From assembly GCA_947165485.1 (NCBI GenBank), contig CAMVAP010000030.1:1-37521 (forward strand): a stretch of DNA of 37,521 nucleotides. Direction: 5' to 3'. Positions 3,573 through 14,340 of this stretch are shown in pieces. Below the pieces are notes generated by a model that was not told where the DNA came from, made no database searches, and was given only the letters and a program-made list of their open reading frames with translations. The first letter of the stretch is position 1; each line of letters begins with the position of its first letter. Both the position numbers and the translations under genes were made by a program. The stretch is from an uncultured Prevotellaceae bacterium. Its GTDB lineage: Bacteria; Bacteroidota; Bacteroidia; Bacteroidales; Muribaculaceae.

Positions 3573-3643
3573 TGTCCTGTGGTGTAATGGTAGCACATCG
3601 GATTCTGGTTCCGCTTGCGAGGGTTCGAATCCTTCCAGGACAA
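3573..3643 (+). tRNA. tRNA-Gln (anticodon CTG)
   Basis: The acceptor stem TGTCCTG (3573-3579) pairs with CAGGACA (3636-3642). The D-arm starts GTG and ends CAC. The anticodon loop TTCTGGT gives CTG, which reads CAG glutamine codons. The T-arm is GAGGG-TTCGAAT-CCTTC with one G-U pair. The 27-43 anticodon-stem pair is mismatched, a minor oddity. No CCA is encoded. It is flanked by its own promoter (3526-3555) and a strong terminator (3650-3679). Confidence 0.93.
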
Positions 3644-3649
3644 CAAGTG

Positions 3650-4393: not shown

Positions 4394-7225
4394 TCACAAA
4401 GCCTTAAGGCTTTCGTACCATTCACACACCCGATTGATGGCAGGAGTGTCGATGCCATTCAATCTAGCCGTATCTCTGATATAGAATGTACCGCACTCAA
4501 AATCTTCGGTGAAATAGCGACTCTTTAAATCAGGGATAAAACCGTCGCCAGCCTGCATCATTGGTGATTGAATCGTTTTGAAAGCAGGTATTGAACGTAT
4601 CTTTTGCGTCAAGGAAGATGCGTCAACCGACTCATAATAATCCAATATCGAAGGTACACTATTTTGATCAATTGACAGATGCCTCAATAGTAATTGAAGT
4701 TCTGAATCCATATCAATCAGCAACTGTGATGCCTCATCGGTCCACTCAGCATAAAACAACGGGGCTCTGTCATAGACAACCATAGGATTCCAATCTTTCC
4801 ACATGGTGTACATTCTTGCAGGATGAAGCAAGGGATTGCTATTTGATAAACTAACCTCATAGAAATTGTCTAGCAATTTAACCGGTGTATTTAATAGTTG
4901 CTCAAATATCATCCGAATCGCATTTCCATTTCCATTTTCGACACACACACTCAGCGATTTCTTTGATCCCAATAAATCGGCTTCTTTACCATATTCCACG
5001 ATGCGGGATATAAATGGAACCCTCTGAAAACCAAAGATTGTCTGTTTGCCAATCACTTCATGAGCATGGAAGAAGAAACCTGTATTAGAAACTATGCTTC
5101 CAACAATAGTTCGCTCGTTCAAATACGGTTTAATTCTCTCTAACATGGATTTGATGTGTGGTCCGGGTAAACAGATAAAGATAACATCAGATTCAGGAAT
5201 AACATCTGCTGGATCAGACGAAACGCGATTCAATTCACCAACAAGCACATCTGCTCCATTAGACTCCGCAACATTTATCTTGAGTGAAGAAGACCAACTC
5301 TCGGGATGACCAGTCAGCACATTGACACGATGTCGTCCTTGTGCAGCTATATATCCAGCCATGACATGACCCAAATTGCCTCCGCCACAAATGCAAATAT
5401 TCAAGCCGGAAAGAGCCCTTAAGGCTTCGACAAGGCGATTGTTGTCCTTCTCGTCGCGGATGGCGATTCTGATATAGTTCTTACCTTCAAGCCCAGTCTT
5501 GGTATCACAATCTTTAATGAGAATATTGTATTTATTAAGAAGTATTTCGGTCAGTTGGCGAGAAGTGAAATGCTCTTTCACCTGGCATAAGAAGAAATTG
5601 GCCTGTGTGGGAATCACTCGAAGGTATGAAATCGTTGACAGTGCCTCGGCAAAACGGTTTCGCTCGGTGACAAATTTACGGCACGCATCCTTGTAGAACG
5701 ACTCGTACTTGTTAAAGATTTGCATGTAGAACTCAGCAAAGGAATTGATGTTCCAGATGGCGACATCCTTCTTTATCTTATCCAGCAAATCGGTATCGGC
5801 TCCAGCCAATATGCCCAGGCGAAGACCTGGAACGCCATAAGACTTGCTGATGCTCTTCATCACCAACAGTTCAGGGTATTTCTCCAAAAGCTCGTCATTC
5901 AACAACGAGTTGGCAGGTCCCTCGTCGGTAAAGTCCACAAATGACTCATCAACAATTAACCTTATACCACGACGAGCGCACCACTCAGCCAATGCCAGAA
6001 CATCGTTCTTGGGGATATAATTACCCGAAGGATTATCTGGGTTAATCAACAACAGTGATTTAATGTCTCTGGTCTCATAAAAACGCATCAAATCTTGTGC
6101 CGTATAACGCAAGTCCTTGTTTTCAGGATAAAAGGCTTCAATTGCATCGTGAGGCAAGCGATGGGGATATTCTTCAAAAGTGGGATACACAACACCCACC
6201 TTTCCTTGCTCCACATACCGTTCCATCAAACTCTTAATCAGTTCAGCGGCTCCATTGCCCACCACGACATAGTTGCTACTGATGCCAAAGTACTTGCCAG
6301 CCAACAGTGAATTAACAGCCATGCCACTGGGATACTGAGTTAACAACTCATCAAAGTTGGCTCGCATCTCGGCACGCATACGCTTGGGCGGGAAGTAAGG
6401 ATTCACAAGATAGCAGAAATCCAGCAATTGGGGGAAGCGCCAATAGCCACCATACCTGACATGGTATTTATTGAGTTTTTCTCTCTCGTGAGAGAATATG
6501 GCTTCGGCAATATCTTTGTCCTGCACATCATCAATTTCATACCAAGGCTTGTCCCCAATGGGCAATGCCTTGAGATTGGCTTGATCCAGCAAAGTGATCA
6601 CCCGCAAGACCTGTTCATAATACTCATTGTTACCCATCACCTTGCAATAAGCATCAAGGAAAGGCACATACACCCGAGTAGAGAAATCCTTACTGAACTT
6701 GTAAACGTTCACTGTTTTGTAATAGAAATCGACCTCGGCATAGTTGAAAGCCTTCTTGGGCACAAAATTGACTATGTTGTTTTCTTTATTGATACGCACC
6801 ATCGTACCGTCCATCCATGTCTCATACTTCGCGACAAGTGCCAAGTTGGGATACGGGTCATCGAGAATCATCTGGAACAAGCTGTCATCGAGAATCAAGT
6901 CACTCTCAATAAGCAACGTGTCATCTTCCATCATCTTATCCTTGACCAGGGCCAGCGAATAGATATTATTAGTCTTGTCATAGACTGGATTCTCGGCATA
7001 CTCAATTCTCAATCTGTCGTCATAACGGTTCCCGATGTAATCCATCAATTCCTTGCCTTTATACCCAACAACCATAACAAGACGTGAAAGATTGAGTTGG
7101 CACAGCTGCTCCAGCATCCTATCAATAAGACGGACACCATTCACTGGCAACATACACTTGGTATTATCCCGAGTATATTTGCCTAATCTACGGCCCATTC
7201 CAGCAGCCAAAATAATCGCTTGCAT
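4394..7225 (-). CDS. tri-domain fusion: LicC/PntC-like nucleotidyltransferase, CobD/HisC-like PLP enzyme, opine-dehydrogenase-like
   Basis: A 943-residue fusion. Residues 1-245: nucleotidyltransferase with LAAGMGRRL (6-14), K23, TNNIYSL (85-91), acidic ESD (107-109) and WYEIDDVQD (228-236), the LicC/PntC pattern that makes CDP-choline or CDP-phosphonate. Residues 255-605: fold-type I PLP enzyme with GNGAAELI (323-330), NPDNPSG (395-401), VDESF (425-429), Schiff-base Lys461 in SISKSYGVPGLRLG, and R586; this resembles CobD threonine-phosphate decarboxylase and HisC. Residues 608-943: Rossmann motif GGGNLG (614-619) and NPLLHP with His801, as in octopine/opine dehydrogenases. It is the last gene of the operon, 41 bases after licD. 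Its base composition is visibly AT-richer than galE. Likely role (inference): making and CMP-activating an amino-alcohol phosphate that LicD transfers to a glycan. Confidence 0.85.
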   Translation of the reverse strand: MQAIILAAGMGRRLGKYTRDNTKCMLPVNGVRLIDRMLEQLCQLNLSRLVMVVGYKGKELMDYIGNRYDDRLRIEYAENPVYDKTNNIYSLALVKDKMMEDDTLLIESDLILDDSLFQMILDDPYPNLALVAKYETWMDGTMVRINKENNIVNFVPKKAFNYAEVDFYYKTVNVYKFSKDFSTRVYVPFLDAYCKVMGNNEYYEQVLRVITLLDQANLKALPIGDKPWYEIDDVQDKDIAEAIFSHEREKLNKYHVRYGGYWRFPQLLDFCYLVNPYFPPKRMRAEMRANFDELLTQYPSGMAVNSLLAGKYFGISSNYVVVGNGAAELIKSLMERYVEQGKVGVVYPTFEEYPHRLPHDAIEAFYPENKDLRYTAQDLMRFYETRDIKSLLLINPDNPSGNYIPKNDVLALAEWCARRGIRLIVDESFVDFTDEGPANSLLNDELLEKYPELLVMKSISKSYGVPGLRLGILAGADTDLLDKIKKDVAIWNINSFAEFYMQIFNKYESFYKDACRKFVTERNRFAEALSTISYLRVIPTQANFFLCQVKEHFTSRQLTEILLNKYNILIKDCDTKTGLEGKNYIRIAIRDEKDNNRLVEALRALSGLNICICGGGNLGHVMAGYIAAQGRHRVNVLTGHPESWSSSLKINVAESNGADVLVGELNRVSSDPADVIPESDVIFICLPGPHIKSMLERIKPYLNERTIVGSIVSNTGFFFHAHEVIGKQTIFGFQRVPFISRIVEYGKEADLLGSKKSLSVCVENGNGNAIRMIFEQLLNTPVKLLDNFYEVSLSNSNPLLHPARMYTMWKDWNPMVVYDRAPLFYAEWTDEASQLLIDMDSELQLLLRHLSIDQNSVPSILDYYESVDASSLTQKIRSIPAFKTIQSPMMQAGDGFIPDLKSRYFTEDFECGTFYIRDTARLNGIDTPAINRVCEWYESLKAL

Positions 7226-7266: not shown

Positions 7267-8070
7267 TTAATCATAGAATTGAAGACGCTCCACGTGGTGA
7301 TACACGTGGTCAAGGTCATCGGGAAGTCGCATGTAGTCACCAAACATGGTTTGCAACATGTGATGACTATTACCGGGGACAGGGAGCTGCACTCCTTCAA
7401 AAATGTGGGTCTTGAGCGGGAAAACATCATTGATGTCATAAATGTTATGGAAAGGAATACCGTAATCACACATCAATGCATCGGTGCCGCTCAAGCGACT
7501 AAGCATGCGCAACAATGGGAAAGAGACATGACGATTGAACCATGTCAACGCCCTGATCTTGCCCATGGCACCACTGCCCCCATTGCGAAAAAAGTTGTAA
7601 GCCAGGCTTTGAAGGCGCAGGCGCTGAGTCCACGGCAAGAGCTTGTCCAAAGGAAAGATGTCAATAAAGATGCCGCGTTCCTTGAACACCTTGTCAAAGT
7701 TCCCTTCATCAAGGAAAGAGCGTCGATCACGCAATTTAGTGATGAAAAGGAAATAGTTCTTGTCGGTATCGTTAGTTTGCAAAGCGATGTGCTCTGGCAA
7801 CTCGTCGGGCAAGACCTCCAGCAGCCGCTTGTAGTCTTTACGCATCATCGCCACATCCAAATCGTCGTCCCAAGGAATAAATCCGTCGTGTCGAAAAGCG
7901 CCCAGCAACGTACCACCATACAGGAAGTATGGGATATCATGCTTCTTGCAAATTCGATCCAGTTCTTGTACCATCTCCAGCATTACCATTTGCTGGCGGC
8001 GCAAGGGTGACCCCTCAGGGTTAAATCGAGCCTTGAGTTCAGCAGCGTTAAATGTCGGTTTCTCTTGCAA
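7267..8070 (-). CDS. licD: LicD-family phosphotransferase
   Basis: Protein of 267 residues of the LicD family, which transfers phosphocholine or a similar phospho-group from a CDP donor onto cell-surface sugars. The diagnostic nucleotidyltransferase-fold core is at residues 52-80: GGTLLGAFRHDGFIPWDDD followed by LD, with the metal-binding acids D68, D69, D70 and D72. Further family blocks are IFIDIFPLD and the late YGIPFHNIYDINDVFPL. It lies 17 bases after the small membrane protein gene and 41 before the fusion carrying a LicC-like domain, the expected donor-making partner. No choline-uptake (licB) or choline-kinase (licA) homologue is visible nearby, so the transferred group is probably not imported choline. 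Confidence 0.88.
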   Translation of the reverse strand: MQEKPTFNAAELKARFNPEGSPLRRQQMVMLEMVQELDRICKKHDIPYFLYGGTLLGAFRHDGFIPWDDDLDVAMMRKDYKRLLEVLPDELPEHIALQTNDTDKNYFLFITKLRDRRSFLDEGNFDKVFKERGIFIDIFPLDKLLPWTQRLRLQSLAYNFFRNGGSGAMGKIRALTWFNRHVSFPLLRMLSRLSGTDALMCDYGIPFHNIYDINDVFPLKTHIFEGVQLPVPGNSHHMLQTMFGDYMRLPDDLDHVYHHVERLQFYD

Positions 8071-8087: not shown

Positions 8088-8600
8088 TTAAGATGCGGCC
8101 TTCTTTTCGGTCAGTTTTAACAGGAGGCCGAAACCACAGGCAAGTACGATTGACATGATCAACTGTGATTGCCAGTTAGCCATCAAATTTGCTGAATTGA
8201 AAGCGATACCGCTCACGCATAAGCACTTGAGCAGGCGGAAAACGACTTTTGACACAATGATGCTGACAAGCATTCCAGCGATTGCGTTCTTACCTAACTT
8301 CGTCAGCCAATAGAACAGCTTGACGTTAAGCAGCAACTCAACTACCATAAGAGCGCAAATGATGGGCGTGGGCATACCAGATAGAATCATTGATGAGATG
8401 GGCAACACGGCTGCCAAGAGGTAGCTGTTTTGATGGTTCCCAACGATAAGCATTCCAGCGAAAAGCGCAATCCTCATTGGCTCAAAATAGTGATATGACA
8501 AGCCAAACAGGTGCATGATGGCCGGAGTAATACAGAACAGGGCGATGATCACAGCATCGACGATGAGTGTATTTACACTTACTAGAGATTTAGTTTGCAT
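8088..8600 (-). CDS. small polytopic membrane protein of unknown function
   Basis: 170 residues, almost entirely hydrophobic, with about five predicted TM segments (near 10-32, 42-58, 62-92, 105-125 and 142-162) and a short charged C-terminus. Size and layout recall substrate-binding S components of ECF transporters, but I see no family motif that settles it. It sits inside the glycan operon, 26 bases after galE and 17 before licD, so a role in uptake or handling of a precursor for the LicD group is possible. I do not recognise the family with certainty. Confidence 0.7.
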   Translation of the reverse strand: MQTKSLVSVNTLIVDAVIIALFCITPAIMHLFGLSYHYFEPMRIALFAGMLIVGNHQNSYLLAAVLPISSMILSGMPTPIICALMVVELLLNVKLFYWLTKLGKNAIAGMLVSIIVSKVVFRLLKCLCVSGIAFNSANLMANWQSQLIMSIVLACGFGLLLKLTEKKAAS

Positions 8601-8626: not shown

Positions 8627-9673
8627 TTACATGATGCCGCGTTCGCGGAGGCGTTTTTGCCAGTTCCAGGCGCTGAGCATGGTGTCGTCGAGGGAGATCT
8701 CGGCGTGCCAGCCCAGGACCTCGTTGGCGCGTTTGGGATCGGCCCAAATCTGGACGATGTCACCGGGACGACGCGGTGCAATCTTGTGAGGCACCTTGAC
8801 GCCAGTGGCACGCTCAAACGAGTGCAGCAACTCCAGCACAGAAGTTCCGTTGCCGGTGCCGATGTTAAAGATCTCGAGTGCCTCGTCGCTCTTGTCCTCA
8901 AGCATGCGCTCCAGAGCCTTGACGTGGGCCTTGGCCAAGTCAACGACGTTGATGAAGTCGCGGATGCAGGAGCCGTCACGCGTGGGATAGTCGTCGCCAA
9001 AGATGCTCAACTCCTTGCGCACGCCGATGGCGGTCTGGGTCAGATAGGGCACCAGGTTCTGGGGCACACCGTTGGGCAGTTCACCGATTTCGGCACTGGG
9101 ATGTGCGCCGATGGGGTTGAAGTAGCGCAACAGGATAGCCTTGATGGGGCTGCCGCTGCGGATGACATCGTGGATGATGTCCTCACAGATCTGCTTGGTG
9201 GCTCCGTAGGGCGAGGTGGCCTTCTTGGTGGGCGCATCCTCGGTAATGGGATTCTTGTCGGGCTCGCCATAGACGGTGCATGACGATGAGAACACAAATC
9301 CCTTCACGCCAAACTCGGGCATGAGCTCCAGCAGGTTGAGCAGGATGTTGATGTTGTTGCGGTAGTACATGATGGGCTTCTCGATGCTCTCGCCCACGGC
9401 CTTGCTAGCTGCAAAGTTGATGATGCCGTTGATGCCAGGGTTGTCCTCAAACAAACGGCGCACCACAGCACGGTCGGTGCAATCACCCTCCACAAACACG
9501 GGGCGCACCCCGGTGATGCGCTCGATGCCGTCCAGCACCTCGATATTACTGTTGCTCAAGTTATCGATAATTACCACCTCGTAGCCAGCCTGTTGCAGTT
9601 CTACGGTGGTGTGGGAACCGATGAAGCCGGTTCCGCCGGTCACTAAAATTTTACCTTTCATTGTTTGATTCAT
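8627..9673 (-). CDS. galE: UDP-glucose 4-epimerase
   Basis: Interconverts UDP-glucose and UDP-galactose (or the N-acetyl forms) with bound NAD. 348 residues, normal length for GalE. The N-terminal Rossmann motif is GGTGFIGSHT; the catalytic Ser/Tyr pair is seen as SSSCTVYG and SPYGATKQ (YxxxK); the C-terminal part has the RRPGDIVQIWADP block typical of GalE. The first ATG (9673) overlaps the stop codon of the flippase gene by one base (TAATG), which suggests translational coupling; a second ATG at 9661 is also possible. It supplies galactose-type sugars for the glycan made by this operon (inference). Confidence 0.95.
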   Translation of the reverse strand: MNQTMKGKILVTGGTGFIGSHTTVELQQAGYEVVIIDNLSNSNIEVLDGIERITGVRPVFVEGDCTDRAVVRRLFEDNPGINGIINFAASKAVGESIEKPIMYYRNNINILLNLLELMPEFGVKGFVFSSSCTVYGEPDKNPITEDAPTKKATSPYGATKQICEDIIHDVIRSGSPIKAILLRYFNPIGAHPSAEIGELPNGVPQNLVPYLTQTAIGVRKELSIFGDDYPTRDGSCIRDFINVVDLAKAHVKALERMLEDKSDEALEIFNIGTGNGTSVLELLHSFERATGVKVPHKIAPRRPGDIVQIWADPKRANEVLGWHAEISLDDTMLSAWNWQKRLRERGIM

Positions 9674-11142
9674 TATATTGTTGATGTTTTAGATTTCTTG
9701 GAACGGATAAACTCGATACACTCCTCGAGGATTCGGGCGTGCAGCAGCTTCATCGTGATGACATAGAGCGCGGCTGCAAGGACAACACGTGCCATCAGCA
9801 GGAAGTACATGTTGCCGATAAAGCGGGTCACCAGATAGGTCACCGCCATCACCACAAGGGCAATGAGCATGAACGGCAACAGATCGCGCAGCATGGTCAT
9901 GAAACGATAGCCGATGAGGCGTGAGGTAAACAGTTGCCATGCCAATAGCCACAGGATATTGATGCAAGCAAACGCAATCACCATGGCCATGATGCCCAAC
10001 TTGTGGCACGCCAGTACCGCGACGAGCATGATGGCGATCTGGGCAATGGTGAGCCACATGTAGGTGCCTGACTTGCCCTGGCTCAAGAACAAATTCTGAT
10101 AAACCGTGTACAGTGGAATGAAGGCACCACTGATGCACAGCACCTGCAACAACGGGATGCTGTTGACCCACTTGTCGCCAATGGCAATGAGTATCACCTG
10201 TGGAGCCACCAGCGCCAAACCAAACATGGCAGGGAAAGCCAGGAACGCCGTGAACCGCAACAACTTGCCGAACACGCGCCGCTGTCGCTCATTGTCATCG
10301 GTCACTCGTGTGAGAACAGGCTGGGCCACTTGTGCCACGGTATTGGTAACCAGTTGATTGGCCATCGTGTTCCACTTGTTGGCCTGTGTAAAGTTACCAA
10401 CGGCCTGAGCAGGGAACAGTCGGCCAAAGATGACCGTCAACACATTGTTGTTGATGGTCGTGAGCACTGCCGTAATCAGCACCTTGTAACTGAACGAGAA
10501 CATTTGTTTCACGGGGGTGAAATCCACCTTGAATGTGGGGCACCAGCGGGTGAAATAAAAACGCCCGATGCAGATGACCACATTATATAATATCTGCTGT
10601 GTTGCAAGGCTCCAATAAGAAAAGCCCATGAAAGCCATCGTCACGCCCACAGTGCCCGACACCACCAGCGCCGACAATGAGGTGATAGCCTTCTCCTTCA
10701 TCTTGAGGCTCCTCACGAGCATGGCATTGGGGGAAATACCCACTGCGGCAAAGATGATCGCCAGGAACACATATCGTGACAACGACTCCAGACAGGGCTG
10801 ATGGAAAAACGCCGCGATCAAGGGAGCGCACAGGAACAGAACGAGATACAACAGCAGGCTCATTGCCGTATTGAACCAGAACACCGCGTTGTAATCATTA
10901 TGCTTGATGTCCTTGATGTTGACCAGCGCCACACCAAAGCCGCTTTCCTGCAAATTGTTGGCCAGCAGAGTGAATATGGCCAACATGCCCACAATGCCAT
11001 ATTCGCCAGGCGACAGCAAGCGGGCCAGAAAGATGCCGATAATCAGATTGAGCAACTGCATACCGCCGCTGCTCAAGAAGCCCCAAAACAACCCCTGGGC
11101 TGTTTTCTCCTTCAAGTTCCGGTTATCGACGCCCTCGTTCAT
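9673..11142 (-). CDS. Wzx-like oligosaccharide flippase
   Basis: Polytopic membrane protein of 489 residues in the polysaccharide-transport (MOP/MVF) superfamily, which flips lipid-linked sugars across the inner membrane. The start is put at 11142 because that ATG overlaps the upstream stop in an ATGA arrangement, and the N-terminus then reads NLKEKTAQGLFWGFLSSGG, typical of RfbX/Wzx proteins. Other family signs are LLSPGEYGIVGM near residue 45 and about 12-14 hydrophobic segments. No Wzy-type polymerase or Wzz is present in the operon, so the exported unit may be short or polymerised elsewhere. Confidence 0.9.
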   Translation of the reverse strand: MNEGVDNRNLKEKTAQGLFWGFLSSGGMQLLNLIIGIFLARLLSPGEYGIVGMLAIFTLLANNLQESGFGVALVNIKDIKHNDYNAVFWFNTAMSLLLYLVLFLCAPLIAAFFHQPCLESLSRYVFLAIIFAAVGISPNAMLVRSLKMKEKAITSLSALVVSGTVGVTMAFMGFSYWSLATQQILYNVVICIGRFYFTRWCPTFKVDFTPVKQMFSFSYKVLITAVLTTINNNVLTVIFGRLFPAQAVGNFTQANKWNTMANQLVTNTVAQVAQPVLTRVTDDNERQRRVFGKLLRFTAFLAFPAMFGLALVAPQVILIAIGDKWVNSIPLLQVLCISGAFIPLYTVYQNLFLSQGKSGTYMWLTIAQIAIMLVAVLACHKLGIMAMVIAFACINILWLLAWQLFTSRLIGYRFMTMLRDLLPFMLIALVVMAVTYLVTRFIGNMYFLLMARVVLAAALYVITMKLLHARILEECIEFIRSKKSKTSTI

Positions 11143-11657
11143 CTTTTGTCCAGAATCATATCGATCCACTCTCGCACGCAAGCATCACCACCACAACGAG
11201 TCAACACGAGAATGCGAGGAATGGATTTCACCTTGTCGCAAGCATCGGCAGGACATGCCGCCCAGCCAACCGCCGACAACAGGTCATAACAGTTCACATC
11301 GTCGCCGATGTAGGCCACCTGCTGCATCGAGATACCCATTTCTTGACAGATCTCACGGGCCGCAGCCAGCTTGCCCCCATCACGGGCGCCCTGCTTGAGG
11401 TAGTCCAGTCCCAACTTGCGGGCACGGTTCTCGTTGATGGCCACATTCTCGCTGGTAACAATACCCACCTTCACGCCTGTGCGTTGCAGCATCTGCAAGC
11501 CCATGCCATCGCGGGTATTGAATTTCTTGAACTCGGTGCCGTCGGTACCATAATACATGCCACCGTCGGTCAAGGTGCCGTCAACATCGGTCAAGAACAA
11601 CCTGATGTCACTGGGATAAGGAACGAGACAAGGATTATCGTTATGCATATCTGTCAT
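11139..11657 (-). CDS. KdsC-like HAD phosphatase
   Basis: HAD-superfamily phosphatase of about 172 residues, the size of KdsC (KDO-8-phosphate phosphatase) and of the phosphatase domain attached to some NeuA proteins. Motif I is DVDGTLTDGG, followed by FNTRDGMGLQML, the SEN motif II segment, and YIGDDVNCYDLLSAVG with the motif IV acids. The ATG at 11657 is chosen; a GTG at 11666 overlapping the upstream stop as GTGA is an alternative. No kdsA, kdsB, neuB or neuA gene is nearby, so it either completes a pathway encoded elsewhere or dephosphorylates another sugar phosphate for this glycan. Confidence 0.85.
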   Translation of the reverse strand: MTDMHNDNPCLVPYPSDIRLFLTDVDGTLTDGGMYYGTDGTEFKKFNTRDGMGLQMLQRTGVKVGIVTSENVAINENRARKLGLDYLKQGARDGGKLAAAREICQEMGISMQQVAYIGDDVNCYDLLSAVGWAACPADACDKVKSIPRILVLTRCGGDACVREWIDMILDKR

Positions 11658-11662
11658 GATTG

Positions 11663-12610
11663 TCACTTCAAGTATTTCTCAATGTTATAACGCGGACGGT
11701 GCTTGCCCTCTGTGTAGATGCGCCCGATATAGGCTGCGATGATACTGAGGCAGATGAGCACACATCCACCCACAAACCAGATGGACAGCATCAACGAGGC
11801 CCATCCCTGCACACCGCGACCCTGACACAAAGCCACAATCACATAGATGAGGATTCCCAAGCTGATGAGCAAGAAGATCAAGCCCAAGTCAAAAATCAGG
11901 CGCAATGGCTTGACACTGAACGAGGTCACGCCGTCGATAGCAAATGAGAGCATCTTACTCAGCGGGTATTTGCTCTCGCCCGCCTGCCGCTCCAAGCGGT
12001 CATAATAGACCGAATCGGTCTTATATCCCAGCAGCGGCACCAGGCCACGCAGGAACAGATTGCGCTCCTCATACTGGCACAGAGCATTTACCGCACGCCG
12101 GCTCATCAAGCGGAAATCGGCATGGTTATATACCGACTTGACCCCCATACTGGTCATGAATCTATAGAACATCTGGGCCGTTGTGCGCTTGAAGAAAGTA
12201 TCGGTCGAGCGCTTGCGGCGCACACCATAGACGATGTCACAGCCATCATCAAACTTCTGCATCATCTCGGGGATGACATGGATGTCATCTTGCAGGTCGG
12301 CATCAATCGAGACGGTCACATCAGCATCGGCACGAGCAGTATCGAGTCCGGCCATGAGCGCATTCTGATGTCCGACGTTGCCGGCCAGTTTGAGCCCGCG
12401 CACGTGGTCATCACCGGCGCAGTACTCCTCGATGATCTGCCAAGTGCGGTCACGTGAGCCATCGTTGACATAGAGTATGTAACTGCCTTGCCCCACCAGG
12501 CTCTTGTCAATCATGTCGTCAAGCAACGCACGCAATTGCCGGTTGGTCTGAGGCAAAACCTCCTCCTCGTTGAAACATGGCACAACTATCGCTAAGATTG
12601 AAGATTCCAT
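11663..12610 (-). CDS. GT2-family glycosyltransferase, polyprenyl-phosphate sugar type
   Basis: Membrane-anchored glycosyltransferase of 315 residues. The catalytic GT-A domain (1-230) shows VVPCFNEEEVLP, YVNDGSRDRTW and DADLQDD; the Q in ADLQD marks the DPM1/GtrB subgroup that puts a sugar on a polyprenyl phosphate. Two TM segments follow (about 240-265 and 275-300). It is the first gene of the seven-gene operon, 35 bases from a clear promoter, and it overlaps or abuts the KdsC-like gene. As the only glycosyltransferase here, it probably supplies a lipid-linked sugar donor used on the outer side of the membrane. Confidence 0.9.
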   Translation of the reverse strand: MESSILAIVVPCFNEEEVLPQTNRQLRALLDDMIDKSLVGQGSYILYVNDGSRDRTWQIIEEYCAGDDHVRGLKLAGNVGHQNALMAGLDTARADADVTVSIDADLQDDIHVIPEMMQKFDDGCDIVYGVRRKRSTDTFFKRTTAQMFYRFMTSMGVKSVYNHADFRLMSRRAVNALCQYEERNLFLRGLVPLLGYKTDSVYYDRLERQAGESKYPLSKMLSFAIDGVTSFSVKPLRLIFDLGLIFLLISLGILIYVIVALCQGRGVQGWASLMLSIWFVGGCVLICLSIIAAYIGRIYTEGKHRPRYNIEKYLK

Positions 12611-12787: not shown

Positions 12788-12813
12788 CAGATGATAAAGA
12801 AAACTAATTGACG

Positions 12814-13695
12814 ATGATACTATCCATGACTGGATTTGGCAAGGCCGTGAAGGTGTATAACAACAAGAAAATCACCGCCGAAGTCAAGTCACTGAACAGC
12901 AAGCAACTGGATTTTGGGGTACGCACACCCCAAAGCCACCGAGAGATTGAGATGGAACTGCGCAACAACGTGTCCACGGCACTGTTGCGCGGTAAGATTG
13001 ATTTGTTTGTGTACTGCGAGCCCATCGAGGGGGCGGCATCGGGCACCATCAATATTCCGATGCTGCAACAATACAAAGCCCAGATCGAGCAGATGGCTAT
13101 TGAACTCAATTTGCCGCAGCCCGAGGACTGGTACGCCACATTGTTGCGCATGCCCGACGCACTCAAGACCGAGGCCAAGGCCACCGAGGCCGACGAGGAC
13201 GAACTGAATGTCGTTCGTGAGGTTGTAGCCCAAGCCACCGAGCAGTTGATAGACTTCCGCCGTCAAGAGGGGACTCGACTGGCCGCCTTCTTTGAGGAGA
13301 AGATCGCCGCCATCCAGGCATTGCTTGATGAAGTGCCGCGATATGAGGAGCCCCGCACCCAAAAGATCAAAGGCCGCATCCTTGACGCACTGACCAAAAT
13401 CAAGGAAATGGACTACGATAAAAACCGCTTTGAGCAGGAACTCATCTATTATATTGAGAAGCTCGACATTACCGAGGAGAAAATCAGGCTACAGAACCAC
13501 CTGAACTATTTCCTGGAGACCATGCACGGCGACCAACCCGGCCAGGGCAAGAAACTGGGCTTCATCAGTCAAGAAATCGGGCGTGAGGTGAACACGATGG
13601 GCTCCAAGGCCAATCAAGCCGACCTGCAGAACCTGGTGGTGCGCATGAAGGATCACTTGGAACAGATCAAGGAGCAAGTGCTGAATGTGCTTTAA
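12814..13695 (+). CDS. yicC: YicC/YloC-family endoribonuclease
   Basis: 293 residues, normal for YicC. The start is the ATG at 12814, giving the family-typical MILSMTGFGKA; the frame also opens at a TTG at 12808 but that only adds two residues. The N-terminal YicC domain spans about 1-155 and the C-terminal DUF1732 domain about 205-293, with the signature GKKLGFISQEIGREVNTMGSK near residues 248-268. The family is described as an endoribonuclease in E. coli. It is followed at a distance of 72 bases by gmk, a common pairing in bacteria, and the two are probably co-transcribed from the box at 12780. Confidence 0.93.
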   Translation: MILSMTGFGKAVKVYNNKKITAEVKSLNSKQLDFGVRTPQSHREIEMELRNNVSTALLRGKIDLFVYCEPIEGAASGTINIPMLQQYKAQIEQMAIELNLPQPEDWYATLLRMPDALKTEAKATEADEDELNVVREVVAQATEQLIDFRRQEGTRLAAFFEEKIAAIQALLDEVPRYEEPRTQKIKGRILDALTKIKEMDYDKNRFEQELIYYIEKLDITEEKIRLQNHLNYFLETMHGDQPGQGKKLGFISQEIGREVNTMGSKANQADLQNLVVRMKDHLEQIKEQVLNVL

Positions 13696-13725
13696 CACGC
13701 AGTGTTGCCACGACAAAGCCGTGGC
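13694..13725 (+). repeat. double hairpin between yicC and gmk
   Basis: AACAC/GTGTT (13694-13706) is followed at once by GCCACG/CGTGGC (13707-13725). The second hairpin uses the same GCCACG and CGTGGC words, followed by CCCAC, as the hairpin at 16919-16937. No U-run follows. Confidence 0.5.
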
Positions 13726-13767
13726 CCACATGACACGGGCTCACAAACCGAAAAAAGAATAAAATAA

Positions 13768-14340
13768 ATGGAACAAGGCAAATTGATTATTATATCGGCC
13801 CCGTCGGGTTCAGGCAAATCGACCATTATCGGGCGCATCATGCAGGACGAGTCATTGCGACTGGCCTTCTCGGTCTCGGCCACTACCCGTCCCCGCCGGG
13901 GGCAGGAAGTGCCTGGCGTGGACTACTACTACAAGACCATTGACGAGTTCAAGCAGATGATTGCCAATGACGAGCTGGTAGAATATCAGGAGGTGTATGA
14001 GGGTCGTTACTACGGCACTCCCAAGAGCGAGGTGGAGCGTATCACTGGCATGGGCAAGAATGTGGTGCTCGACCTCGATGTGCTGGGTGGAGTGAACGTC
14101 AAGAAGATGTACGGCGAGCGTGCCATCAGCATCTTTATCCAGCCGCCCAGCGTGGAGGTGCTTCGCCAGCGTCTCATCAACCGTGGCACTGACAGCATGG
14201 AGGATATCAAGGCCCGGGTCGATAAGGCCGAATTTGAAATTTCAATCGGTCCACAATTTGACCACACCGTCATCAACGACGACCTGGAAACCGCCGTCAA
14301 CGAGGTTCACAACCTCATCGCCGCCTTCATCAGCGCTTGA
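13768..14340 (+). CDS. gmk: guanylate kinase
   Basis: Phosphorylates GMP to GDP with ATP in purine nucleotide synthesis. 190 residues. The P-loop SAPSGSGKST is at residues 10-19; the GMP-binding segment TTRPRRGQEVPGVDYYY and the EYQEVYEGRYYGTP block are present; the lid carries the Arg-rich RQRLINRGTD segment. All the usual catalytic features are intact. It lies downstream of yicC and is followed by a hairpin at 14376-14411. Confidence 0.97.
   Translation: MEQGKLIIISAPSGSGKSTIIGRIMQDESLRLAFSVSATTRPRRGQEVPGVDYYYKTIDEFKQMIANDELVEYQEVYEGRYYGTPKSEVERITGMGKNVVLDLDVLGGVNVKKMYGERAISIFIQPPSVEVLRQRLINRGTDSMEDIKARVDKAEFEISIGPQFDHTVINDDLETAVNEVHNLIAAFISA

What the first reader, a model, noticed from the sequence alone, without database searches (positions are those of the whole stretch)
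4394..7225. Three-enzyme fusion that may build an unusual CDP-activated amino compound
Seen: one 943-residue frame with intact motifs for a LicC/PntC-like nucleotidyltransferase, a CobD/HisC-like PLP enzyme (Lys461) and an opine-dehydrogenase-like Rossmann domain (GGGNLG, His801). Known: LicC/PntC make CDP-choline or CDP-phosphonates; CobD-like enzymes decarboxylate O-phospho-amino acids; opine dehydrogenases couple an amine to a keto acid. Inference: phosphoserine or a similar compound is decarboxylated, N-carboxyalkylated and CMP-activated in one protein. I recall 2-(1-carboxyethylamino)ethyl phosphate as an O-antigen component in Proteus, which would be the kind of product predicted. The three-part order is not one I know as described.
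Basis: partly seen in the sequence, partly recalled or inferred. Interest (0 to 1): 0.78.

Follow-up and report, generated by a model that had tools for sequence, protein, structure and literature searches.

The report
CDP-opine-ethanolamine maker for surface glycans
A gut bacterium carries three enzymes fused into one protein that together probably turn phosphoserine and a keto acid into an activated, opine-decorated ethanolamine, which a neighbouring enzyme then hooks onto a surface or protein-bound sugar chain; unfused versions occur in many rumen and gut Bacteroidales.

Summary
The 943-residue frame is real (minus strand, 7225 to 4394). It joins a LicC/PntC-type nucleotidyltransferase, a PLP enzyme closest to SMUL_1544 and CobD decarboxylases, and an octopine-dehydrogenase domain; catalytic residues are conserved. 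The triple fusion was seen in one genus of the genomes sampled. Unfused, the same trio is widespread: of the 80 best of 443 opine-dehydrogenase loci, 71 have the two-domain partner directly upstream, 39 overlapping by exactly 4 nt; LicD is near in 59, and in 14 the opine dehydrogenase is fused to LicD. Elsewhere an ornithine-cyclodeaminase-type enzyme takes the same place (rarely both occur); one such gene sits on a CMP-aminoethylphosphonate operon, pointing to a two-carbon amine. metG lies in 31 of the 80 loci, as at the known Bacteroidota O-glycosylation locus, though not in the window's own family. Best reading: phosphoserine to CDP-ethanolamine, N-carboxyalkylated by a keto acid (probably pyruvate), then moved by LicD onto a glycan. 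Families and context are shown; substrates, order, product and acceptor are inferred. New variant of a known kind.

The parts
4394..7225 (-). Three-domain fusion gene, 943 aa
6476..7225 (-). Domain 1, residues 1 to about 250: LicC/PntC-type nucleotidyltransferase (R13, K23, D109, E230)
   Evidence: Pfam NTP_transf_3; LicC 1jyk and PntC-AEPT 6pd1 by sequence; PntC-AEPT 6pd2 is the top Foldseek hit of the two-domain model
5411..6466 (-). Domain 2, residues 254-605: CobD/SMUL_1544-type PLP enzyme, PLP lysine K461
4397..5410 (-). Domain 3, residues 606-943: octopine-dehydrogenase-type reductase (GGGNLG, H801, R903, D908)
7267..8070 (-). LicD, putative transferase of the CDP-activated group, 41 nt upstream of the fusion gene
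   Evidence: Pfam LicD 6.9e-43; spacing
8088..8600 (-). 170-aa protein with hydrophobic stretches (by eye), no Pfam or NCBIfam match
8627..9673 (-). GalE-type sugar epimerase
   Evidence: TIGR01179 402.8 bits, cut-off 262.3
9673..11181 (-). Wzx flippase; best family O-glycosylation flippase NF058658 (660 bits, below its 720 cut-off)
11139..11666 (-). HAD phosphatase, KdsC/KDN-9-phosphatase-like
   Evidence: TIGR01670 125.1 bits, cut-off 106.95; NF058599 161.7, cut-off 180
11663..12610 (-). GT2 glycosyltransferase, PgfS/ArnC-like, first gene of the operon
12808..14340 (+). YicC-like gene and guanylate kinase, divergent boundary of the operon; markers for one or both are found in 15 of 80 loci of the unfused trio
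   Evidence: for guanylate kinase; for neighbourhoods; the name YicC is recalled

Best explanation
The protein is a one-chain donor factory for a decorated glycan. The PLP domain decarboxylates O-phospho-L-serine (free, or after CMP attachment) to the ethanolamine-phosphate level; the N-terminal domain couples it to CTP giving CDP-ethanolamine; the C-terminal opine-dehydrogenase domain condenses the free amine with an alpha-keto acid, most likely pyruvate, and reduces the imine with NAD(P)H to CDP-[N-(1-carboxyalkyl)ethanolamine]. The adjacent LicD transfers the phospho-group to a lipid-linked glycan that the Wzx of the same operon flips. Shown here: domain families, catalytic residues, operon, recurrent coupling to LicD. 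Inferred: phosphoserine, pyruvate, step order, product, acceptor. In many Prevotella loci the unfused trio lies with metG and an O-glycosylation-type wzx, so a protein O-glycan is the favoured acceptor there; in the window the acceptor is less certain.
Against: No biochemistry. The PLP domain misses the curated CobD cut-off (203.5 against 290.55 bits), though the genome's own B12-operon CobD-like protein misses it too (239.2). By fold SMUL_1544 and CobD are tied. Octopine DH Gln118 aligns with Asn714 here and is Ser in 33 of 56 rows, and its Cys148 aligns with Ser, so substrate details may differ. OCD and opine DH stand together in three loci (L085; L207, L208), so they are not simple replacements. 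Seven of 28 family loci have neither. Three of the 80 loci have no recognisable core (L101, L107, L116), two show only the PLP part (L085, at a contig edge; L131) and one is cut by the contig edge (L092). LicD is often on the opposite strand (L073-L080), and 17 of 80 loci have no CDP-type transferase marker within 4 genes. The TagB/F-like label rests on weak Pfam scores (22.2 and 26.4 bits, cut-off 22.1; two proteins checked). In two of six opine genomes of the order sample the core is on another contig. The phosphonate link rests on one locus; OCD at 1e-40 was in 4 of 295 order genomes and, with another OCD as query, in none of 345 class genomes. No metG match in the 28 loci of the window's family. 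The 80 loci were picked by similarity to the query, so they are not an even sample.
Confidence: 0.6

Rival explanations
1. Same pathway but from O-phospho-L-threonine: the PLP domain makes 1-amino-2-propanol phosphate, as true CobD does, and the product is a CDP-N-carboxyalkyl-aminopropanol.
Against: SMUL_1544 is the better sequence match (157.1 against 115.8 bits; its serine-phosphate substrate is recalled); the OCD partner family is shared with an aminoethylphosphonate operon (one locus); the genome has its own CobD-like gene beside CbiB.
Confidence: 0.13
2. The PLP domain is an aminotransferase rather than a decarboxylase, for example making serinol phosphate (as reported for Cj1437), so the product is a CDP-serinol-type opine.
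For: HisC-type aminotransferases share the fold and are close (TIGR01141 150.8 bits); the solved two-domain relative PntC-AEPT carries a transaminase.
Against: The best sequence family is CobD (203.5 bits) and the best solved relative is titled a decarboxylase.
Confidence: 0.12
3. The front two domains make CDP-ethanolamine for LicD, and the opine-dehydrogenase domain acts on something else, such as a free amino acid, an amino sugar or a keto acid, and is fused only for co-expression.
Against: Opine DH is fused to the core in one lineage and to LicD in others; an OCD-type reductase, whose annotated relatives reduce C=N bonds, occupies the neighbouring slot in other loci.
Confidence: 0.15

Closest known systems
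PntC-AEPT (Tde1415, PDB 6pd1/6pd2)
   Same: One chain with an N-terminal LicC-type cytidylyltransferase and a C-terminal PLP enzyme, for an aminoethyl phosphorus compound, in clusters with LicD-like or glycosyltransferase genes (PMC6697681 passages)
   Different: Its PLP half is an AEP transaminase, it belongs to phosphonate clusters with PEP mutase, and it has no opine-dehydrogenase domain; no PEP mutase above cut-off in this genome
FrbH of FR-900098 biosynthesis
   Same: Cytidylyltransferase acting on an amino-phosphonic acid (passage of PMC6697681); recalled to be fused to a PLP decarboxylase in the same order
   Different: Acts on L-2-amino-4-phosphonobutyrate for a natural product; opine DH and LicD not recalled there. 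Not compared by sequence here
SMUL_1544 and CobD (O-phospho-amino-acid decarboxylases)
   Same: PLP domain fold and lysine, best solved relatives
   Different: Stand-alone enzymes of cobamide pathways (SMUL_1544 in a norcobamide cluster, passages of PMC7755780); here fused to a nucleotidyltransferase in a glycan operon while the genome keeps a separate CobD-like gene
Octopine dehydrogenase / N-(1-D-carboxylethyl)-L-norvaline dehydrogenase
   Same: Fold, GGGNxG loop, catalytic His, Asp and keto-acid Arg conserved
   Different: Those use amino acids as amine (recalled); here the amine is predicted to be ethanolamine phosphate or CDP-ethanolamine
Cj1436 of Campylobacter capsule
   Same: Makes ethanolamine phosphate from serine phosphate for a surface glycan (PMC12409886 passage)
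   Different: There ethanolamine phosphate is put on as an amide of glucuronic acid and the phosphate removed. Not compared by sequence here
Bacteroidota protein O-glycosylation locus (metG-wzx) and its phosphate-linked decorations
   Same: metG and an O-glycosylation-type Wzx in the same locus as the unfused trio in 22 of 80 loci (examples); P. gingivalis carries phosphoglycerol and P. intermedia phospho-C6H12O5 on a HexNAc (passages)
   Different: No ethanolamine or opine group in the passages found (term searches); the window's own operon lacks metG
Opine-type groups in O-antigens (N-(1-carboxyethyl)lysine, alanopine)
   Same: Amine plus 1-carboxyethyl on surface glycans (PMC10609480 passages)
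   Different: Linked as amides, not through a CDP-activated phosphodiester (by the structures listed there)

Membership tests
LicC/PntC-type nucleotidyltransferase (NTP_transf_3, PF12804) | Profile match over the curated cut-off | tested here: met
   40.9 bits, cut-off 27
LicC/PntC-type nucleotidyltransferase (NTP_transf_3, PF12804) | GXG(T/S)R...PK loop | tested here: inconclusive
   GMGRR...TK: the two glycines, R13 and K23 are invariant in 65 sequences, but T/S is R12 and P is T22; consensus from a PMC6697681 passage
LicC/PntC-type nucleotidyltransferase (NTP_transf_3, PF12804) | Uses CTP and an alkyl phosph(on)ate | not testable with these tools
   needs enzyme assay
CobD, threonine-phosphate decarboxylase (TIGR01140) | Curated equivalog cut-off | tested here: not met
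   203.5 against 290.55 bits; not filed as CobD
SMUL_1544-like O-phosphoserine decarboxylase | Fold and PLP lysine | tested here: met
SMUL_1544-like O-phosphoserine decarboxylase | Decarboxylates phosphoserine | not testable with these tools
   needs assay; the substrate of SMUL_1544 itself is recalled
Octopine_DH (PF02317) family | Profile over cut-off and catalytic His, Asp, Arg | tested here: met
   104.2 bits, cut-off 30; H801, R903, D908 in 56 of 56 rows; roles of OcDH His212, Arg324, Asp329 recalled
Octopine_DH (PF02317) family | Reductive condensation of an amine with a keto acid | not testable with these tools
   needs assay
PntC-AEPT fusion | PLP half is an AEP transaminase (TIGR03301, cut-off 360.8) | tested here: not met
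   TIGR03301 is not among the best 25 of 92 families, the 25th having 45.4 bits; the PntC-AEPT-like protein of L161 scores 380.3
PntC-AEPT fusion | PEP mutase in the genome | tested here: not met
   the only PF13714 hit is below cut-off and is PanB; genome about 92% complete, so a missing piece is possible
FrbH | Sequence relationship | not tested
   no FrbH sequence was at hand
[quoted passage not shown]
   no metG in the window, so the window operon is not filed there; of 80 related opine-DH loci 31 hold metG and 22 of these also the WzxOg marker, order not tested except by reading (metG directly before Wzx in L145)

The most novel reading that the evidence does not exclude
A modular, undescribed toolkit in gut and rumen Bacteroidales builds CDP-ethanolamine straight from phosphoserine and then N-carboxyalkylates it with one of two unrelated reductases (opine DH or OCD/mu-crystallin type, sometimes both), for transfer by LicD, a TagB/F-like or a CDP-alcohol transferase onto the general protein O-glycan, giving a zwitterionic opine phosphodiester decoration (predicted +195.03 Da with pyruvate) that has escaped glycoproteomics.
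Probability: 0.35. Interest if true: 0.82.

Novelty: new variant of a known kind. Interest (0 to 1): 0.66.

Why it matters
If true, it supplies an enzymatic route to opine-type amine phosphates in surface glycans, through a donor (CDP-N-carboxyalkyl-ethanolamine) that no paper listed by my ten searches of open-licence papers appeared to describe (several of these lists were capped, and titles and abstracts were what I saw except for the passages cited). It would put a new charged decoration on glycans of gut and rumen bacteria, probably on general protein O-glycans in Prevotella, and it gives an exact mass to look for. It also shows two unrelated reductase families taking the same place beside one core enzyme.

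Tried and rejected
B12 role: rejected, since a separate CobD-like gene lies beside CbiB. Phosphonate role in this genome: disfavoured, since the only PEP-mutase-family hit is PanB. Strict either/or of opine DH and OCD: held in 13 of 13 readable loci of the genus sample but broken by L207 and L208 in the family and L085, so dropped as a rule. Proteus O14 N-carboxyethyl-ethanolamine phosphate: no held paper found; the O14 passages of PMC5560731 and the term search of PMC8027243 say nothing of it. First structure model: nucleotidyltransferase part poor (most ten-residue blocks of 1-250 under 70), replaced by a core-only model (mean 88.3). In one search the list was filled by the PLP domain, so the NTase fold was not tested there; one search supports it through 6pd2, with whole-chain TM-score only 0.37 and rmsd near 22, so the two domains are not arranged alike. 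P. intermedia's phospho-C6H12O5 does not match the predicted nitrogen-containing group. Plasmid hits of opine DH lie in other surroundings (3 of 33 records read); the 5 phage hits match the PLP part only. OCD in the class sample: none of 345, which by the tool's own note shows little.
Full report
WHAT IS THERE. The reported interval holds one 943-codon frame on the minus strand, 7225 to 4394. Pfam gives, from the N terminus, a MobA-like NTP transferase, a class I/II PLP domain, a Rossmann domain of the ApbA/F420 type and the octopine-dehydrogenase helical domain, each over its gathering score. NCBIfam's best match for the PLP part is CobD (203.5 bits, below its 290.55 cut-off), then HisC.

ACTIVE SITES. 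Against solved chains the first third aligns with LicC (1jyk) and PntC-AEPT (6pd1), with R13 and K23 on the catalytic loop, although the loop deviates from the GXG(T/S)R...PK consensus at two places (role of the loop lysine from passages of PMC6697681). The PLP third aligns best with 6oux, then 3ftb and CobD 1lc5, with K461 on the PLP lysine (that this lysine binds PLP in CobD is recalled). The last third aligns with octopine dehydrogenase nearly end to end, with H801, R903 and D908 on His212, Arg324 and Asp329 (the roles of these three are recalled). They are invariant in 56 of 56 opine rows of an 86-row alignment; R13, K23, D109, E230, K461 and R586 are invariant in 65 core sequences. Gln118 of octopine dehydrogenase aligns with Asn714 and is Ser in 33 of 56 rows, so the amine or keto acid may differ from octopine dehydrogenase's own.

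OPERON. Upstream on the same strand lie LicD (41 nt away), a 170-aa protein without family, a GalE-type epimerase, a Wzx whose best family is the O-glycosylation flippase NF058658 (660 bits, cut-off 720), a KdsC/KDN-9-phosphatase-like HAD protein and a PgfS/ArnC-like GT2. The genome keeps a CobD-like gene beside CbiB, and its one PEP-mutase-family hit is PanB, so neither a B12 nor a phosphonate role fits the fusion.

RELATIVES IN THE GENUS. In 25 same-genus genomes (window included) of a 41-genome sample, 14 have the core. Thirteen have readable context (G013 is cut by its contig end): 4 carry the three-domain fusion, 2 the two-domain core followed by a separate opine-DH gene, 7 the two-domain core beside an ornithine-cyclodeaminase/mu-crystallin (OCD) gene (Pfam checked on three of the seven). 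LicD accompanies all 6 opine loci. A TagB/F-like (Glyphos_transf) gene accompanies 5 of the 7 OCD loci, on weak Pfam scores (22.2 and 26.4 bits, cut-off 22.1, two checked). G018 has the same GT2-Wzx-GalE-LicD-core order as the window, without the opine domain and with an OCD gene, on the opposite strand, next to the core.

RELATIVES IN FAMILY AND ORDER. Of 149 family genomes 32 have the core. I read 28 loci of 27 of them; G000, G005, G012 and G163 had been seen in other calls, G1068 was not read. OCD only 11, opine only 8, both 2, neither 7; of the 7 without a reductase 6 have LicD. Of 295 order genomes, 9 have an opine-DH match at 1e-30, of which 3 are a distant 28%-identity kind; the 6 close ones all lie among the 11 genomes with a full core (5 more hits at 1e-60 cover the PLP part only). 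The two are adjacent in 4 of the 6 (G000, G042, G066, G290) and on different contigs in 2 (G317, G218). In G066 a CDP-alcohol phosphatidyltransferase gene follows directly. In the phylum sample 2 of 345 genomes have the core at 1e-80, one of them the window's own; the other, at 30% identity, overlaps a LicD-like gene by 4 nt.

THE UNFUSED TRIO. A scan of the species-genome collection with an opine-DH alignment confirmed 443 loci; the best 80 by similarity were kept, titled mostly Prevotella, Prevotellaceae, Muribaculaceae and other Bacteroidales, with single Erysipelotrichaceae and Fibrobacter MAGs. In these 80 the core is immediately upstream on the same strand in 71, overlapping by exactly 4 nt in 39; elsewhere in the locus in 3; only its PLP part in 2 (L085, at a contig edge, and L131); one is cut by the contig edge (L092) and 3 have none (L101, L107, L116). 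A LicD marker is within 4 genes in 59 of 80, often on the opposite strand (L073-L080); a LicD or TagB/F-like marker in 63, none in 17. In 14 of 80 the opine DH is itself fused to LicD (by marker; Pfam checked on the homologue P0239); L147 further carries a glycosyltransferase-like end (by eye). None of the 80 was labelled a three-domain fusion. A tree of 98 rows puts the 11 three-domain rows used into one clade among separate opine DHs, its exact neighbours being poorly supported, and LicD fusions in more than one place; so the triple fusion most simply arose once. The opine third also has lower GC3 (0.385 against 0.53-0.54). Opine DH is thus fused to the activating enzyme in one lineage and to the transferase in others, which ties it to the CDP-donor pathway.

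WHICH AMINE. In G253 an OCD gene 54% identical to the core's OCD partner overlaps by 4 nt an operon of PEP mutase, phosphonopyruvate decarboxylase and NTase-AEP transaminase, each over its NCBIfam cut-off. That pathway makes CMP-2-aminoethylphosphonate (by established knowledge of PntC), so the same reductase family serves a 2-aminoethyl group, which argues for phosphoserine to ethanolamine phosphate in the core rather than phosphothreonine. This rests on one locus. No other locus held showed the PEP-mutase motif. Serine-phosphate decarboxylation for a surface glycan is known for Cj1436 (PMC12409886 passage). The OCD proteins match families annotated as reducing C=N bonds, all below their cut-offs, so they could do the opine-DH step; but three loci carry both (L085, L207, L208), so they may add different groups or stereoisomers. 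I leave this open.

WHERE THE GROUP GOES. In 31 of the 80 loci a methionyl-tRNA synthetase gene (family checked in L107, over cut-off) lies in the locus, within two genes of core or opine DH in 26, and 22 of the 31 also hold the O-glycosylation-type Wzx marker. Five such Wzx (L102, L108, L110, L137, L145) and the one of L029 all have NF058658 as best family, 577-707 bits, none over 720. A review describes the Bacteroidota O-glycosylation locus as starting with metG followed by wzx (PMC12871550 passages). Phosphate-linked groups on these glycans are known: phosphoglycerol in P. gingivalis (PMC8729774 passages) and phospho-C6H12O5 in P. intermedia (PMC10897501 abstract and passages). Loci L102, L137 and L145 run from metG through core and opine DH to gmk- and yicC-like genes; the window operon also abuts such a pair but has no metG, and no metG was found in the 28 family loci. 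So the O-glycan is the favoured acceptor in Prevotella and a fair guess, no more, for the window.

VERDICT. Observation confirmed; interpretation partly supported and extended. Best reading: CDP-[N-(1-carboxyalkyl)ethanolamine] synthase feeding LicD, confidence 0.6; that the core makes some CDP-amino-alcohol donor I hold near 0.85. I saw no description of this trio in what the paper searches listed; they cover only open-licence papers and several lists were capped.

Noticed in passing
L161:4614-9838: PEP mutase, phosphonopyruvate decarboxylase, NTase-AEP transaminase and an OCD/mu-crystallin gene in one operon: a possible N-substituted aminoethylphosphonate donor pathway.
   Followed up: partly
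L207, L208, L085: Core (in L085 its visible PLP part) followed by both OCD and opine-DH genes; whether they act in sequence or make different products is unexplained.
   Followed up: no
L165:3714-7140: Serratia plasmid: Y4yA-type PLP enzyme, cysteine-synthase-like gene and octopine DH in a siderophore cluster, where an SbnB (OCD family) would be expected from memory: possibly a second place where the two reductase families swap.
   Followed up: no
L025:4413-5615; L034:9189-10394; also L033, L078, L084, L195: A distant family of about 400-aa octopine-DH proteins (25-28% identity), in L025, L078, L084 and L195 a few genes away from the core, in L034 and L033 without it; role unknown.
   Followed up: no
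L147:8001-10769: 922-aa protein joining opine DH, LicD and a glycosyltransferase-like C-terminal part (last part judged by eye).
   Followed up: partly
window 8088-8600: 170-aa protein with hydrophobic stretches between GalE and LicD genes, no family match.
   Followed up: no
window 4394-5410: GC3 of the opine-DH third is 0.385 against 0.53-0.54 in the other two thirds, hinting at a separate origin of that part.
   Followed up: partly
L163, L164: Burkholderia and Paraburkholderia plasmids carry a 32-34% identical octopine-DH gene beside a methyltransferase, a phytanoyl-CoA dioxygenase and a second octopine-DH gene: another opine pathway without LicC or LicD in the listed features.
   Followed up: no
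L162:0-3447: Contig end with an OCD gene and two LicD genes; the core, if present, would lie beyond the contig edge.
   Followed up: no
window 3573-3644: tRNA-Gln (ctg) between a LolC/E-like permease gene and the region of the fusion gene.
   Followed up: no
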